Source: Planomicrobium sp. YIM 101495 (GTDB lineage: Bacteria > Bacillota > Bacilli > Bacillales_A > Planococcaceae). Taken from it: a DNA stretch of 64,000 nucleotides. The DNA lies in assembly GCF_009707665.1 (NCBI RefSeq), contig NZ_WLZW01000001.1:620001-684000 (forward strand), read 5' to 3'. Positions 3,736 to 49,702 of the stretch are shown here, one piece after another. The notes below the pieces were generated by a model, which was not told where the DNA came from, searched no databases, and saw only the letters and a list, made by a program, of their open reading frames with translations. A program made the position numbers and the translations under genes. Position 1 is the stretch's first letter. Each line of letters starts with the position of its first letter.

Positions 3736-3775
3736 GCTTGGCGGCTTACTGCATAGGCCGCTGCGATTCTTGTTT
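3736..3775. repeat. Composite repeat A, 40-nt element copy 1
   Basis: A 40-nt sequence starting GCTTGGCGGCTTACTGC that recurs with one mismatch at 3972-4011, exactly 236 bp away. Its core forms a small inverted repeat GCGGC...GCCGC. A related core GGCGGCTGACTGCGTAGG occurs twice at 49.0-49.3 kb. Confidence 0.85.
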
Positions 3776-3827
3776 GGGTATGTGGAAAAGAGAACTGGTG
3801 TCGCATGTAATGTCGCTCATGGCTTAA

Positions 3828-3888
3828 GGACATGGCTCCCGGGGTAAGCCGAGCTGAGAACTGCTCATCTTACCCCTCCGCCATGTCC
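3828..3888. repeat. Composite repeat A, 61-nt long imperfect hairpin
   Basis: A 61-nt inverted repeat. The outer arm GGACATGGC pairs with GCCATGTCC, the middle arm GGGGTAAG pairs with CTTACCCC, and the inner AGC pairs with GCT around an 8-nt loop. The joints TCCC/TCC and CCG/CAT are unpaired. The element at 49114-49174 has the same length and joints, but its middle stem is GGAAGAAG/CTTCTTCC, which is compensated change. No T-run follows, so it is not a simple terminator. Confidence 0.85.
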
Positions 3889-3971
3889 AGGCCAGCCACT
3901 TCGCTGTTGATCTGTTTAAGTAGTGGAGAATAATAATCAGTATTTCTTTCTAATTTGAGTGTTTCATATTT

Positions 3972-4011
3972 GCTTGGCGGCTTACTGCGTAGGCCGCTGC
4001 GATTCTTGTTT
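3972..4011. repeat. Composite repeat A, 40-nt element copy 2
   Basis: Second copy of the 40-nt element at 3736-3775, in the same orientation and differing by one base. The two copies flank the 61-nt hairpin. Confidence 0.85.
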
Positions 4012-4221
4012 TGGCGAGTTACTACTTCGGCAACACGAGTTACTACTTGGCATCAAATTCTGCATTGACGTTGTCAAGATGCGACTTGATGACTGCGAGA
4101 TACAACTTCGCCAGCTTGAGGTACGGCATGCATCTCCGACTCGCTCATTTTCAAGAGTGGAAAAAACTGCGTCGCGACTAAATACCGAATTAGCTTGAAA
4201 TCTGAAATCACTCACTAATAC

Positions 4222-4394
4222 TTGACACCTTCTGTGAGAATACGACACTGGCTGCTATGCATGGTTCATCCAATCCCCAAGATTCGATGAAACTCCTGTT
4301 AGCGAAGGAGCATAGCGACTGAGGAGGCTCAAAGGCAAATATATGCTTTAGCATGTGAAACTCTTGAATGTAGGTCAGCCTATCATCTCCAATT
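4222..4394. repeat. Composite repeat A, distal module
   Basis: Contains TTGACACCTTCTG, then CATAGCGACTGAGGAGGCTC, then CATGTGAAACTCTTGAATG followed by AGGTCAGCC and ATCATCTCCAAT. The same blocks occur in the same order at 49452-49702. The GCGACnGAGGAGGCTC block resembles a motif I recall as recurrent in intergenic repeats of many Bacillales genomes. Confidence 0.75.
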
Positions 4395-4440
4395 CATACT
4401 CCTAACACAAATTAAAACTTGAAGCACAAATTCTAAAACT

Positions 4441-5714: not shown

Positions 5715-5890
5715 CTTGCTTCTTCCTTTCTGGAAAAAGAAGAAAACCATATAAAAAGTCCTTCTGCAGAACAGAAAGACAGAAAAAGACTGATTCGGTT
5801 TCTTCCGTCCCTGTCGATTCATGTGATCAAGGCAGTGTGATATGTTAGTTTTCAGGCCGTGCAAAGGTGCAGTTCACAAGGATACTGCCC
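5715..5890 (-). promoter_or_regulatory. panC leader RNA, possible attenuator
   Basis: The predicted transcript has about 175 nt before panC. It contains GGGCAGT, which can pair either with a nearby ACTGC or with a more distant ACTGCC, and ends in a terminator-like hairpin at 5751-5780. Alternative pairing plus a terminator suggests attenuation. A pan-motif RNA is known upstream of pantothenate genes in Firmicutes, but I cannot confirm a match by eye. Confidence 0.4.
5751..5780 (-). terminator. Terminator-like hairpin in panC leader
   Basis: On the minus strand GTCTTTCTG, a 5-nt loop and CAGAAGGAC form a nine-pair stem (one U-G), followed directly by TTTTTAT. It lies about 37 nt upstream of the panC start codon, so if active it would control panC expression. 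Confidence 0.6.
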
Positions 5891-5896
5891 ATACAT

Positions 5897-27107: not shown

Positions 27108-27240
27108 TCTGCTTCCTCCTGTAAGGGCATCAAGTCATGCCTATTCACCAGAAGCTGCAAGGACGCGCAGCTTTCTGCAATTAGTCGTTATCAAGAAAAT
27201 TCTAGCACAAGGGCCCGCGTTTCGCAAAAATGTGGGCTGA

Positions 27241-27530
27241 CCGAAAAGCGCAAGCGCCTGTCCAGCTCTGACAGGCATAAGACGGACCCGCGAAGCGACG
27301 CTCTTTGCCGCTTAGTTGGGCCGGATTATGACCCGAAGAGCTAGGCGCTGGAGCCTAGACACCGAAAAGCGCAAGCGGCCGTTTAGACCCGACAAGCGCT
27401 GGAGGCTTTGCGAATGATGGCGCACTTCAGCCTTCAGGCGTAAAGACGAAGCGTCTCGAGGGGCTGGCCGCTGGAGCCTGGACACCGAAAAGCGCAAGCG
27501 GCTTGTTCAGATTCGATGGGCATAAGCCCT
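27241..27530. repeat. Tandem structured repeat, 121-123 bp units
   Basis: Units begin at 27241, 27362 and 27485, each with CCGAAAAGCGCAAGCG; the first two end in CGCTGGAGCCT.GACA and the third is cut short. Each full unit is closed by an inverted repeat: AGCGCCT/AGGCGCT in unit 1 and AGCGGCC/GGCCGCT in unit 2, so the stem is kept while the sequence changes. Internal sequence diverges. I recall repeats starting GAAAAGCGCAAGCG as common in Bacillus-group genomes. Confidence 0.8.
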
Positions 27531-31418: not shown

Positions 31419-31568
31419 AAATTTTTCATCCTTCCAATTCTGATCTGCATATGTTGAACTTAATGAACTAAACTACCGATATTCCGTAAAACAGCTACGC
31501 TCTTTTACTCCATATCTCTTCACTATCATTTGTGAGAGCGGATGACGAGCACCATCTCTCTTTATTTA

Positions 31569-31594
31569 GAAGAAAAAGCGGAGAACGTCCGCTT
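31569..31594 (-). terminator. Terminator-like hairpin in der leader
   Basis: On the minus strand AAGCGGA, a 5-nt loop and TCCGCTT followed by TTTCTTC. It lies about 50 nt downstream of the putative der promoter. It may be a second fni terminator or an attenuator. Confidence 0.5.
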
Positions 31595-31662
31595 GGAGCG
31601 ATTTCTTCCAGCTTTTTTGAATTAAAAACTCTTCCGTTCAACCTATATTGCTATTATACACG

Positions 31663-44256: not shown

Positions 44257-44313
44257 GAGAAAGCATGCTTTAAGAAGCGTCTCGTTTCTAAAGAAACTGA
44301 CACAATCGCACCT

Positions 44314-44440
44314 CCATCTTCTCCCATCCAGACTATACTGTCGGCTTTGGAATCTCACCAAATCCTGCGTTTTACGGCTCGCGGGCTTATGAACAGTGTT
44401 CAATTACCGCCGGTAGGGAATTGCACCCTGCCCCGAAGAT
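44314..44440 (-). ncRNA. FMN riboswitch (RFN element)
   Basis: On the minus strand the aptamer runs from ATCTTCGGGGCAGGGTG through AATTCCCTACCGGCGGT, AGCCCGCGAGC and GATTTGGTGAGATTCC to GACAGTATAGTCTGGATGG. These are the conserved blocks of the RFN family. With FMN bound the downstream terminator should form and shut off the riboflavin transporter gene. Confidence 0.96.
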
Positions 44441-44464
44441 GAATCGTTATTTTATTCTATCCTA

Positions 44465-48819: not shown

Positions 48820-48947
48820 CGGAATCCCTCCAAGTTTCTTCTCTTACCTATTGTACCGATAAGCGTCTTAAAAATAAATAGAAATAGCCTTGTGGGTGGA
48901 TTTTGGGGTGAAGGCAAGTGTTTCATAAATCTTCGCTTCAGGGATTC

Positions 48948-48967
48948 GGACAGGGCTCCCGGAAGAA
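48948..48967. repeat. Truncated left arm of the 61-nt hairpin
   Basis: GGACAGGGCTCCCGGAAGAA matches the left half of the hairpin at 49114-49174, but the right arm is missing. It belongs to a first, partly deleted unit of a 240-bp tandem repeat. Confidence 0.7.
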
Positions 48968-48996
48968 ATAGTGGTGAGGTGGAATTTTCGTTTTAT

Positions 48997-49048
48997 TCTA
49001 CTGTTGGTGTTGGGTTAAATGTTTGGGCGGCTGACTGCGTAGGCCGCC
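48997..49048. repeat. Composite repeat B, unit 1 core
   Basis: TCTACTGTTGGTGTTG at 48997 followed by GGCGGCTGACTGCGTAGG at 49026. Both blocks recur exactly 240 bp later. The second contains GGCGGC...GCCGCC and is related to the 40-nt repeats at 3.7-4.0 kb. Confidence 0.85.
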
Positions 49049-49113
49049 GATGTTCTGATCTGGCGAGAGAAAAAGAATATTGGATGTCGCGTGAGAATCC
49101 GCTTCGTCGCTGC

Positions 49114-49174
49114 GGACAAGGCTCCCGGAAGAAGCCAAGCTGAAGGACGCTCGTCTTCTTCCTCCGCCCAGTCC
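49114..49174. repeat. Composite repeat B, 61-nt long imperfect hairpin
   Basis: Same length and layout as 3828-3888. Outer arms GGACAAGGC and GCCCAGTCC, middle arms GGAAGAAG and CTTCTTCC, inner AGC and GCT, with the same TCCC/TCC joints. The middle stem differs from copy A at several positions, each compensated. Confidence 0.85.
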
Positions 49175-49236
49175 AAACCACCTCCTCCGCTGGGTGTTGT
49201 GGGAGAGGTGGTGATGAGATACAATTTTCATTTCTC

Positions 49237-49288
49237 TCTACTGTTGGTGTTGAGGTAAATGCCTAGGCGGCTGACTGCGTAGGCCGCC
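49237..49288. repeat. Composite repeat B, unit 2 core
   Basis: Second copy of the 48997-49048 block, offset by 240 bp, with a few mismatches between its two sub-blocks. Confidence 0.85.
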
Positions 49289-49451
49289 GCTTTCGGATGA
49301 TTTTGTGTGTACAAGTTATCGGGAGCGCATCAGTATGGATCCCTTCTTATCCAGCATCGCATTGCAACTAAAAATTGATGAGATATGACGAGATGCTCAC
49401 GAGTCTCAATTGAATTTGAGATGACAAACTTCCTGAAATTGTCCGCCAATA

Positions 49452-49702
49452 CCCGACACCTTCTGATAGAACGAGAAGAAGGCACCTTATGCTGGGATCA
49501 TCCCAATCACTGAAATTCTATATAAACCACAATTCTCGAACGAGCTGAGCCAGAATGGAAGAGTGAACGTGCCGGAGTATTAGAGTGAATCCGAGACCCC
49601 ACAGGTTGCGATAGCGACCGAGGAGGCTCGGGTTTGCTCCTCCAGCACGTGAAACTCTGGAATGGAGGTCAGCCGGACTCCGCATAAATCATTTCCAATC
49701 TT
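49452..49702. repeat. Composite repeat B, distal module
   Basis: Contains CCCGACACCTTCTGATAGAA, then GCGATAGCGACCGAGGAGGC, then CACGTGAAACTCTGGAATGG and AGGTCAGCC, ending ATCATTTCCAAT. Same block order as 4222-4394, but about 70 bp longer in the middle. Confidence 0.75.

What the first reader, a model, noticed from the sequence alone, without database searches (positions are those of the whole stretch)
3736..4394. Ordered composite of short repeats shared by two distant intergenic regions
The dinG-panD gap and the resC-resD gap (48948-49702) hold the same modules in the same order: a GGCGGC..GCCGC element, a 61-nt hairpin about 88 nt further on, a second GGCGGC element 236 bp (here) or 240 bp (there) from the first, and a distal module with GACACCTTCTG, GCGACnGAGGAGGCTC and GTGAAACTCT.GAATG. 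There is no transposase, terminal repeat or gene. Both gaps separate genes that are neighbours in B. subtilis, so a unit of about 0.7 kb seems to spread or be maintained as a whole. This could be a non-autonomous mobile element, a structured noncoding RNA family or a chromosome-organising site.
Basis: partly seen in the sequence, partly recalled or inferred. Interest (0 to 1): 0.75.

Follow-up and report, generated by a model that had tools for sequence, protein, structure and literature searches.

The report
Mosaic hairpin repeats in Planococcus genome
Two stretches between genes turn out to belong to a family of about 40 hairpin-forming DNA repeats, most of them built from several modules, which swap parts, multiply locally and differ in place between related bacterial species, most likely as small DNA passengers that cannot move on their own.

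Summary
The two gaps belong to a family of about 40 intergenic elements in this 2.9 Mb genome, whose nearest named relatives are Planococcus and Planomicrobium. Elements hold 1-3 tandem ~240 nt units (a ~60 nt hairpin plus a GGCGGC..GCCGC palindrome); 29 of 40 unit clusters also carry a long distal hairpin. The order never varies here: 30 of 30 distal hits with a unit nearby have it upstream on the same strand. Both hairpins show strong compensatory change and match no Rfam family.

A 0.7 kb block spreading as a whole is not supported: divergence of unit and distal hairpin is uncorrelated over 26 copies (Mantel r = -0.02), although halves of one module correlate. The elements are mosaics.

Related species carry the same two hairpins, in the same polarity when adjacent (11 of 12), but mostly alone and elsewhere. 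One locus holds 7, 5, 4, 3, 2 and 1 units in six sister species; others have a gene there. A third cassette is nested inside hairpin arms.

Best reading: a non-autonomous, BOX/BIME-like modular repeat family reshuffled by recombination. No mobilising enzyme was found; function and strand remain open.

The parts
3736..4400 (+). Composite element 1 (panD-dinG gap)
3740..3761 (+). R module GGCGGC..GCCGC, copy 1
3795..3913 (+). Unit hairpin (covariance model R1 hit, 116.6 bits); core stem about 3830-3886
3976..3997 (+). R module, copy 2 (236 nt after copy 1)
4224..4234 (+). Linker motif GACACCTTCTG
   Evidence: conserved in the alignment
4285..4382 (+). Truncated, mosaic remnant of the distal hairpin; no longer folds as one hairpin
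48915..49700 (+). Composite element 2 (resC-resD gap)
48934..48967 (+). Truncated extra unit (left arm of the hairpin only)
49026..49047 (+). R module, copy 1
49081..49199 (+). Unit hairpin (R1 hit, 129.8 bits); core about 49114-49174
49266..49287 (+). R module, copy 2 (240 nt after copy 1)
49455..49465 (+). Linker motif GACACCTTCTG
49533..49683 (+). Distal long hairpin (R2 hit, 168.6 bits)
31478..31516 (+). 39 nt minimal copy of the related GATAT-ended hairpin family: end arms with almost no inner part
31568..31612 (+). 45 nt minimal copy of the AGAAGAA..TTCTTC outer arms, inner part missing

Best explanation
The two gaps hold members of a multi-copy family of composite, non-autonomous, stem-loop-rich interspersed repeats. 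They work like BOX or BIME elements: a variable number of tandem unit hairpins is followed, in most members, by one long distal hairpin in fixed polarity, mostly in the space between a gene's terminator and the next gene. Shown here: copy number, fixed order, conserved base pairing, differences in presence and orientation between species, unit number varying from 1 to 7 at one locus, mosaic exchange between copies, and a third cassette recurring inside hairpin arms. Inferred: that the modules were dispersed by an enzyme acting in trans (or one now lost) that recognises the hairpins rather than a fixed end sequence; that homologous recombination or gene conversion among dispersed copies then shuffled the modules while keeping their order; and that they are tolerated because they lie largely outside transcripts.
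For: About 40 elements. Order and polarity: 30 of 30 R2 hits with an R1 within 1.1 kb have it upstream on the same strand; 29 of 40 R1 clusters carry R2 downstream. Covariation: unit hairpin in relatives, 95.9% of cells paired, 14 of 17 pairs changed on both sides, 0 of 500 shuffles as high on four of five measures; distal hairpin, 21 of 42 pairs, 0 of 500 on all five. Mosaic: Mantel unit-distal -0.016 (p 0.55), unit-R 0.33 (p 0.004), linker-distal 0.165 (p 0.04), halves of one module 0.33-0.51 (p 0.0003). Gaps: resC-resD 973 nt here, 100-545 in 27 of the 29 relatives' loci fetched (two not measured), and no R1 or R2 hit in any of the 29; panD-dinG 861 nt here, 173 or less in 16 of 22 measured Planococcus/Planomicrobium loci. 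One locus holds 7, 5, 4, 3, 2 and 1 units in six sister species. The fliS-motA gap (names by Pfam) holds R1 in either orientation, R1 with R2, or R2 alone in either orientation. The cassette lies inside distal hairpins and upstream of units.
Against: No mobilising enzyme found: PF01797 (RAYT) has 0 hits in this genome, and 14 loci around RAYT genes in relatives hold no R1 or R2 hit; other transposase families were not surveyed. No target-site duplication and no exact ends were established. No match in the plasmid or phage collections. The fixed order in every composite could also reflect selection for a function. In the closest sister comparison (G014 with G029, 92% flank identity) the absence of R1 may be a deletion. 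At the array locus the 24 other loci are not empty sites: they carry a 340-417 aa ORF there. One pair of composites (L076, L082) is close in distal hairpin, unit and R alike (5, 11, 11%), as block copying would give.
Confidence: 0.7

Rival explanations
1. A structured noncoding RNA family: each composite, or each hairpin, is transcribed and acts as an RNA (sponge, processing signal or trans-acting RNA), so pairing is under RNA-level selection.
For: Strong covariation. On strand-neutral pairs the unit hairpin tolerates A-C (= G-U on the minus strand) more than G-U: 18 against 1 in this genome, 25 against 11 in relatives, and the minus strand of the unit folds better as RNA in both window copies.
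Against: No Rfam match to the elements: none at gathering score in the window, and at E<=1 in six loci only three weak hits, all outside the elements. The distal hairpin shows no such bias here (7 against 9) and the opposite one in relatives (10 against 2), so the two hairpins do not agree on a strand. Orientation to flanking genes is mixed: both genes antisense 23, both sense 11, divergent 6, convergent 1. Many copies lie just outside terminators.
Confidence: 0.14
2. A chromosome-organising or protein-binding DNA site, such as a nucleoid, segregation or gyrase site, kept for its cruciform or hairpin.
For: Copies are spread over the genome; paired cells are mostly Watson-Crick with few wobbles, as expected of DNA palindromes. 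In one relative (G009) unit arrays are sparse in the middle of the chromosome (3 of 31 arrays between 0.97 and 2.34 Mb, positions) and lean to one strand on each half.
Against: G014 and G035 show no such strand lean and G035 no sparse middle by inspection. R1 hits range from 1 to 58 per genome within the genus. The origin of replication was assumed, not located.
Confidence: 0.08
3. Ordered chance accretion: two independent mobile hairpin families that prefer the same kind of gap, with no composite unit.
For: In three relatives both hairpins mostly occur alone (12 R2 hits within 600 nt of 97 R1 arrays); unit and distal divergence is uncorrelated.
Against: Polarity when adjacent is not random: 30 of 30 here, 11 of 12 in three relatives. 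R module, linker and spacings are shared in register between composites of this genome.
Confidence: 0.08

Closest known systems
BOX elements of Streptococcus pneumoniae and S. suis (PMC3049150, passages seen)
   Same: Ordered modules with a variable number of the central one, stem-loop potential, intergenic, many copies, no own gene.
   Different: Here the modules are larger (~240 nt unit, ~140 nt distal hairpin; elements about 0.2-1.2 kb), the distal hairpin carries nested cassettes, and convergent gaps are rare (1 of 41) whereas that paper finds BOX over-represented there. No sequence comparison with BOX was made.
REP / BIME mosaic elements with RAYT transposase (PMC2817692: start of abstract in listings; PMC3733652: start of abstract and passages)
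   Same: Palindromic units combined into mosaics between genes.
   Different: All units have one orientation rather than alternating; much longer hairpins; no RAYT hit in this genome.
MITEs such as bcr1 of the Bacillus cereus group (named in passages of PMC3733652 and PMC2267715)
   Same: Short, non-coding, hairpin-rich, dispersed.
   Different: No shared terminal inverted repeat seen at the ends of the composite. The related GATAT-ended hairpins do have inverted ends; other R2 subfamilies end in other, still complementary letters (seen by eye).
A dispersed hairpin repeat of Planococcaceae with arms like GACTCCTGCGG..GAGACCCCGCAGG..GAGGAGGCTC (resemblance to a common Bacillaceae repeat is recalled; no published name known to me)
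   Same: The distal hairpin of this genome looks like a divergent subfamily of it: R2 has hits in 205 of 250 genomes sampled in the order, and one copy here (C2:199871) is of that type.
   Different: Here it is regularly fused to the unit array and R module; in three relatives only 12 R2 hits lie within 600 nt of an R1 array.

Membership tests
BOX-like modular interspersed repeat | Fixed order of distinct modules with a variable number of one of them | tested here: met
   1-3 units per cluster; 30 of 30 in the same order
BOX-like modular interspersed repeat | Sequence relation to boxA/boxB/boxC | not tested
   No BOX sequence was fetched or aligned
REP/BIME | Palindromic units in alternating orientation | tested here: not met
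   one orientation within each element (one search flagged both strands for element 1; the covariance models did not)
REP/BIME | Cognate RAYT (Y1_Tnp) gene in the genome | tested here: not met
   0 hits in G000; 14 of the 22 genus genomes searched (G000 included) have a hit
REP/BIME | GTAG or CGTC tag at the foot of the palindrome | not tested
   -
MITE | Terminal inverted repeats shared by copies | tested here: not met
   by inspection: ends of the composites show no shared inverted ends; the separate GATAT-ended hairpins do
MITE | Target-site duplication | tested here: inconclusive
   ends too vague, no clean empty/filled pair
MITE | Related autonomous element with the same ends | tested here: inconclusive
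   exact pattern in four genomes (G014 has none): end pairs lie about 70-250 nt apart; the one facing pair at kb distance (5.2 kb, G035) encloses ordinary genes, no transposase. Other transposase families were not surveyed
Rfam RNA family | Match to a known family | tested here: not met
   window, gathering score; six loci, E<=1: three weak hits, none overlapping an element

The most novel reading that the evidence does not exclude
A family-wide system of nested stem-loop cassettes: hairpin modules that are inserted into, removed from and exchanged inside other hairpins at fixed positions, keeping the outer arms and the pairing while the inner part is replaced wholesale, driven by an as yet unknown structure-specific (not sequence-specific) mobilisation or template-switching process.
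Probability: 0.25. Interest if true: 0.68.

Novelty: new variant of a known kind. Interest (0 to 1): 0.43.

Why it matters
A hairpin repeat found in all 36 genomes of its genus searched, and in 5 of 19 genera sampled in its family, has no Rfam entry and no name that I could find in the listed searches. It shows in one data set how composite bacterial repeats are built: ordered modules, tandem arrays of varying length, mosaic exchange, and replacement of the inside of a hairpin with the outer arms kept. That makes the old question of how BOX- and BIME-like elements are assembled and moved testable by comparing strains.

Tried and rejected
RAYT as the mobiliser: PF01797 has no hit in this genome, and 14 loci around RAYT genes of relatives hold no R1 or R2 hit. 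Autonomous partner of the GATAT-ended hairpins: only one facing end pair at kb distance in four genomes, enclosing an oxidoreductase, a phospholipase-D-like protein, a GntR regulator and a PfkB kinase. Phage or plasmid origin: no match to 679 nt of element 2 in either collection, none for the cassette in plasmids, none for two exact patterns in viral contigs. Conserved position (cis-regulation): 42 element loci from relatives against 41 stretches of this genome gave six shared neighbourhoods, about what I would expect by a rough estimate of my own; L107/L061 share the gap and L108/L085 possibly do, both with the element in opposite orientation. Wobble asymmetry as a test of strand: the two hairpins disagree. 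A replication bias: suggestive in G009 only.

Limits of the counts. The terminator scanner is crude and missed some terminators visible by eye (L061, L074, L087, element 1). One search used 53 typed unit hits and 28 distal hits; L063 and L089 (4644) dropped out because their weaker units were not typed in. One search used all 64 unit hits and 32 of 34 distal hits; the two dropped (20.2 and 19.5 bits) are strong hits read on the other strand. Three pieces under 150 nt were left out; one search used 39 of 44 pieces. The structure counted was predicted on the same alignment, which was itself fitted to R1. My first check for the R palindrome in relatives read one strand only and was replaced.

Full report
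WHAT IS THERE. The four GGCGGC..GCCGC elements, the hairpin between each pair and the distal motifs are present as described. BLAST of each copy against the window's own assembly (G000, 2.93 Mb in 9 contigs) gave 93 and 98 matching pieces, which merge into about 40 substantial elements; 39 further stretches holding them were fetched. They lie between the longer ORFs; short ORFs of 91-139 aa are called inside some and a few flanking ORFs overlap an end. Relatives named by a dinG search are Planococcus and Planomicrobium at 65-68% DinG identity; the species of the window itself is unnamed.

ANATOMY. Motif mapping shows one grammar with near-constant spacing: a unit of h -47- H -104- R -88- (about 240 nt), repeated, then the linker motif GACACCTTCTG, then about 157 nt on the GAGGAGGCTC motif, 35 nt on GTGAAACTCT and 15 nt on GGTCAGCC; several elements lack or add modules. 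The last three motifs belong to one long hairpin of about 138 nt. Two covariance models were built: R1 for the unit hairpin (38 sequences) and R2 for the distal hairpin (20 sequences). In the window and the 39 stretches R1 gives 64 hits in 40 clusters (19 single, 18 double, 3 triple; some partial) and R2 gives 34 hits at E<=0.01. Every R2 hit with an R1 within 1.1 kb lies downstream of it on the same strand, 30 of 30; two R2 hits are alone; 29 of 40 R1 clusters have R2. Element 1 has R1 but only an R2 remnant.

STRUCTURE IS CONSERVED. In relatives the unit hairpin keeps 95.9% of cells paired while 14 of 17 pairs change on both sides. Four of five measures are reached by 0 of 500 shuffles; the fifth, number of further pair types, is not special (332 of 500). 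Slid partners fall to 31-47%. In this genome 21 of 42 pairs of the distal hairpin have compensatory changes, 0 of 500 on all five measures; several of these are single rows, by inspection mostly the separate classical-type copy L091. No Rfam family matches the elements. Which strand matters is unclear: strand-neutral pairs give G-U against A-C counts of 1:18 and 11:25 for the unit (this genome, relatives), but 7:9 and 10:2 for the distal hairpin. Template switching between near-palindromic arms could also produce compensatory changes without selection; I cannot exclude it.

DISTRIBUTION. R1 has hits in 36 of 36 genomes of the genus searched and in 0 of 24 genomes from other families of the class. 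A family-wide sample gave 43 of 200 genomes and 5 of 19 genera. R2 is wider: 205 of 250 genomes and 17 of 19 genera in an order-level sample whose listed members are all of this family. The R palindrome, read on both strands at up to five mismatches, occurs 62 times in 34 of 39 stretches of this genome and 0 times in 131 loci from relatives; at six mismatches one appears (L216). So it looks specific to this genome.

NOT ONE BLOCK. For 26 composites, pairwise divergence of the nearest unit and of the distal hairpin is uncorrelated (r = -0.016, p = 0.55). The control works: halves of the same module correlate (0.33-0.51, p = 0.0003), as do adjacent modules (unit-R 0.33, p = 0.004; linker-distal 0.165, p = 0.04); R-linker and R-distal are weak (0.15 and 0.11, p = 0.10 and 0.16). 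The two closest distal hairpins (4% apart) have nearest units 31% apart, though one pair (L076, L082) is close throughout. Units within one composite are 2-6% apart in 5 of 12 pairs and up to 39% in others, and nearest and farthest units correlate (r = 0.37, p = 0.02, n = 10). So units of one array share history, while the composite is a mosaic with preserved order, as homologous exchange between dispersed copies would give.

DIFFERENCES BETWEEN SPECIES. The resC-resD gap is 973 nt here and 100-545 nt in 27 of 29 relatives' loci fetched (two not measured), and none of the 29 has an R1 or R2 hit. The panD-dinG gap is 861 nt here and 173 nt or less in 16 of 22 measured Planococcus/Planomicrobium loci, with no R1 or R2 hit in that gap; by eye one long gap (L135) holds a GATAT-type hairpin. 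At one gap in the G014 clade, orthologous loci hold 7, 5, 4, 3, 2 and 1 units in six species, over intervals of 359-1545 nt. The other 24 loci have no R1 hit, but carry an ORF of 340-417 aa in that interval, so they show no empty site. In the fliS-motA gap species hold R1 in either orientation (L254, L255, L257; L262), R1 with R2 (L254, L255), or R2 alone in either orientation (L256; L260); two others keep only a degraded R1 by eye (L263, L264). In three complete relatives R2 lies within 600 nt of an R1 array 12 times, 11 of them downstream on the same strand; about 1.7 would be expected under uniform placement, which ignores that both are intergenic.

NESTED CASSETTES. Distal hairpins of this genome carry an insert of about 78 nt at the same point after GAGGCTCG (L073, L077, L086, L097; nearly whole in L089, part in L071); others carry a different insert in the left arm (L092, L099, the second copy of L074), and L073 and L096 a third. 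The cassette recurs upstream of unit hairpins (L065, L089, L097), 16 times in all in this genome's stretches, and its 49 nt core is 98% identical in three relatives' loci (L208, L258, L261). At the R2 of the fliS-motA gap the outer left arm is 96% identical between G014 and G029 and the outer right arm 87%, while the inner part drops to 36-59%; G015, whose flanks are more distant, keeps the inner part of G014 (95-100%). The window holds two minimal outer-arm copies with the inside missing (31478-31516, 31568-31612), and GATAT-ended pairs elsewhere come in lengths from 70 to about 250 nt. Against a simple hairpin-in-hairpin picture, the isolated cassette does not fold significantly by itself (z = -1.16).

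SETTING. Flanking genes run antisense to the element on both sides in 23 of 41, sense in 11, divergent in 6, convergent in 1; 23 against 11 gives p = 0.058. By a crude scan 22 of 34 gene ends facing an element have a terminator in between, 19 of these ending within 60 nt of the element. So most copies lie in the space between a terminator and the next gene, which speaks for tolerance rather than regulation.

KNOWN OR NEW. The nearest described kind is the BOX element (PMC3049150, passages), with REP/BIME and MITEs next (abstract starts; passages). PMC12306157 on REP detection mentions neither Planococcus nor Sporosarcina (passage search). PMC2267715 lists stem-loop families of B. halodurans (passages), which I could not compare because no sequences were seen. 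I found no paper on this family in search, which cover only the open-licence library.

Noticed in passing
window 31478-31612: Two minimal outer-arm hairpins (GATAT type, 39 nt, and AGAAGAA..TTCTTC type, 45 nt) side by side, with the inner part missing.
   Followed up: partly
window 27240-27510: A different dispersed repeat (ACCGAAAAGCGCAAGCG.C / CGCTGGAGCCT) in two to three copies about 121-123 nt apart; a similar piece stands in the resC-resD gap of relative L226.
   Followed up: no
L156:3672-3822: In Lysinibacillus sp. FJAT-14745 an R2-type hairpin sits in the same panD-dinG gap as element 1.
   Followed up: no
L208, L258, L261 and 16 matches in this genome's stretches: A 49 nt cassette core 98% identical between species whose ResC proteins are 76-77% identical to that of the window: either recent spread or strong constraint.
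   Followed up: partly
L284-L313 (array locus of the G014 clade): The tandem hairpin array stands where 24 other loci of the genus carry an ORF of about 340-417 aa: the gene seems lost or replaced in that clade.
   Followed up: no
G009 whole genome: Unit arrays are sparse in the middle of the chromosome (3 of 31 between 0.97 and 2.34 Mb) and lean to one strand on each half; not seen in G035.
   Followed up: partly
window 5801-5891 and 44312-44444: Rfam matches on the minus strand: pan motif and FMN riboswitch.
   Followed up: no
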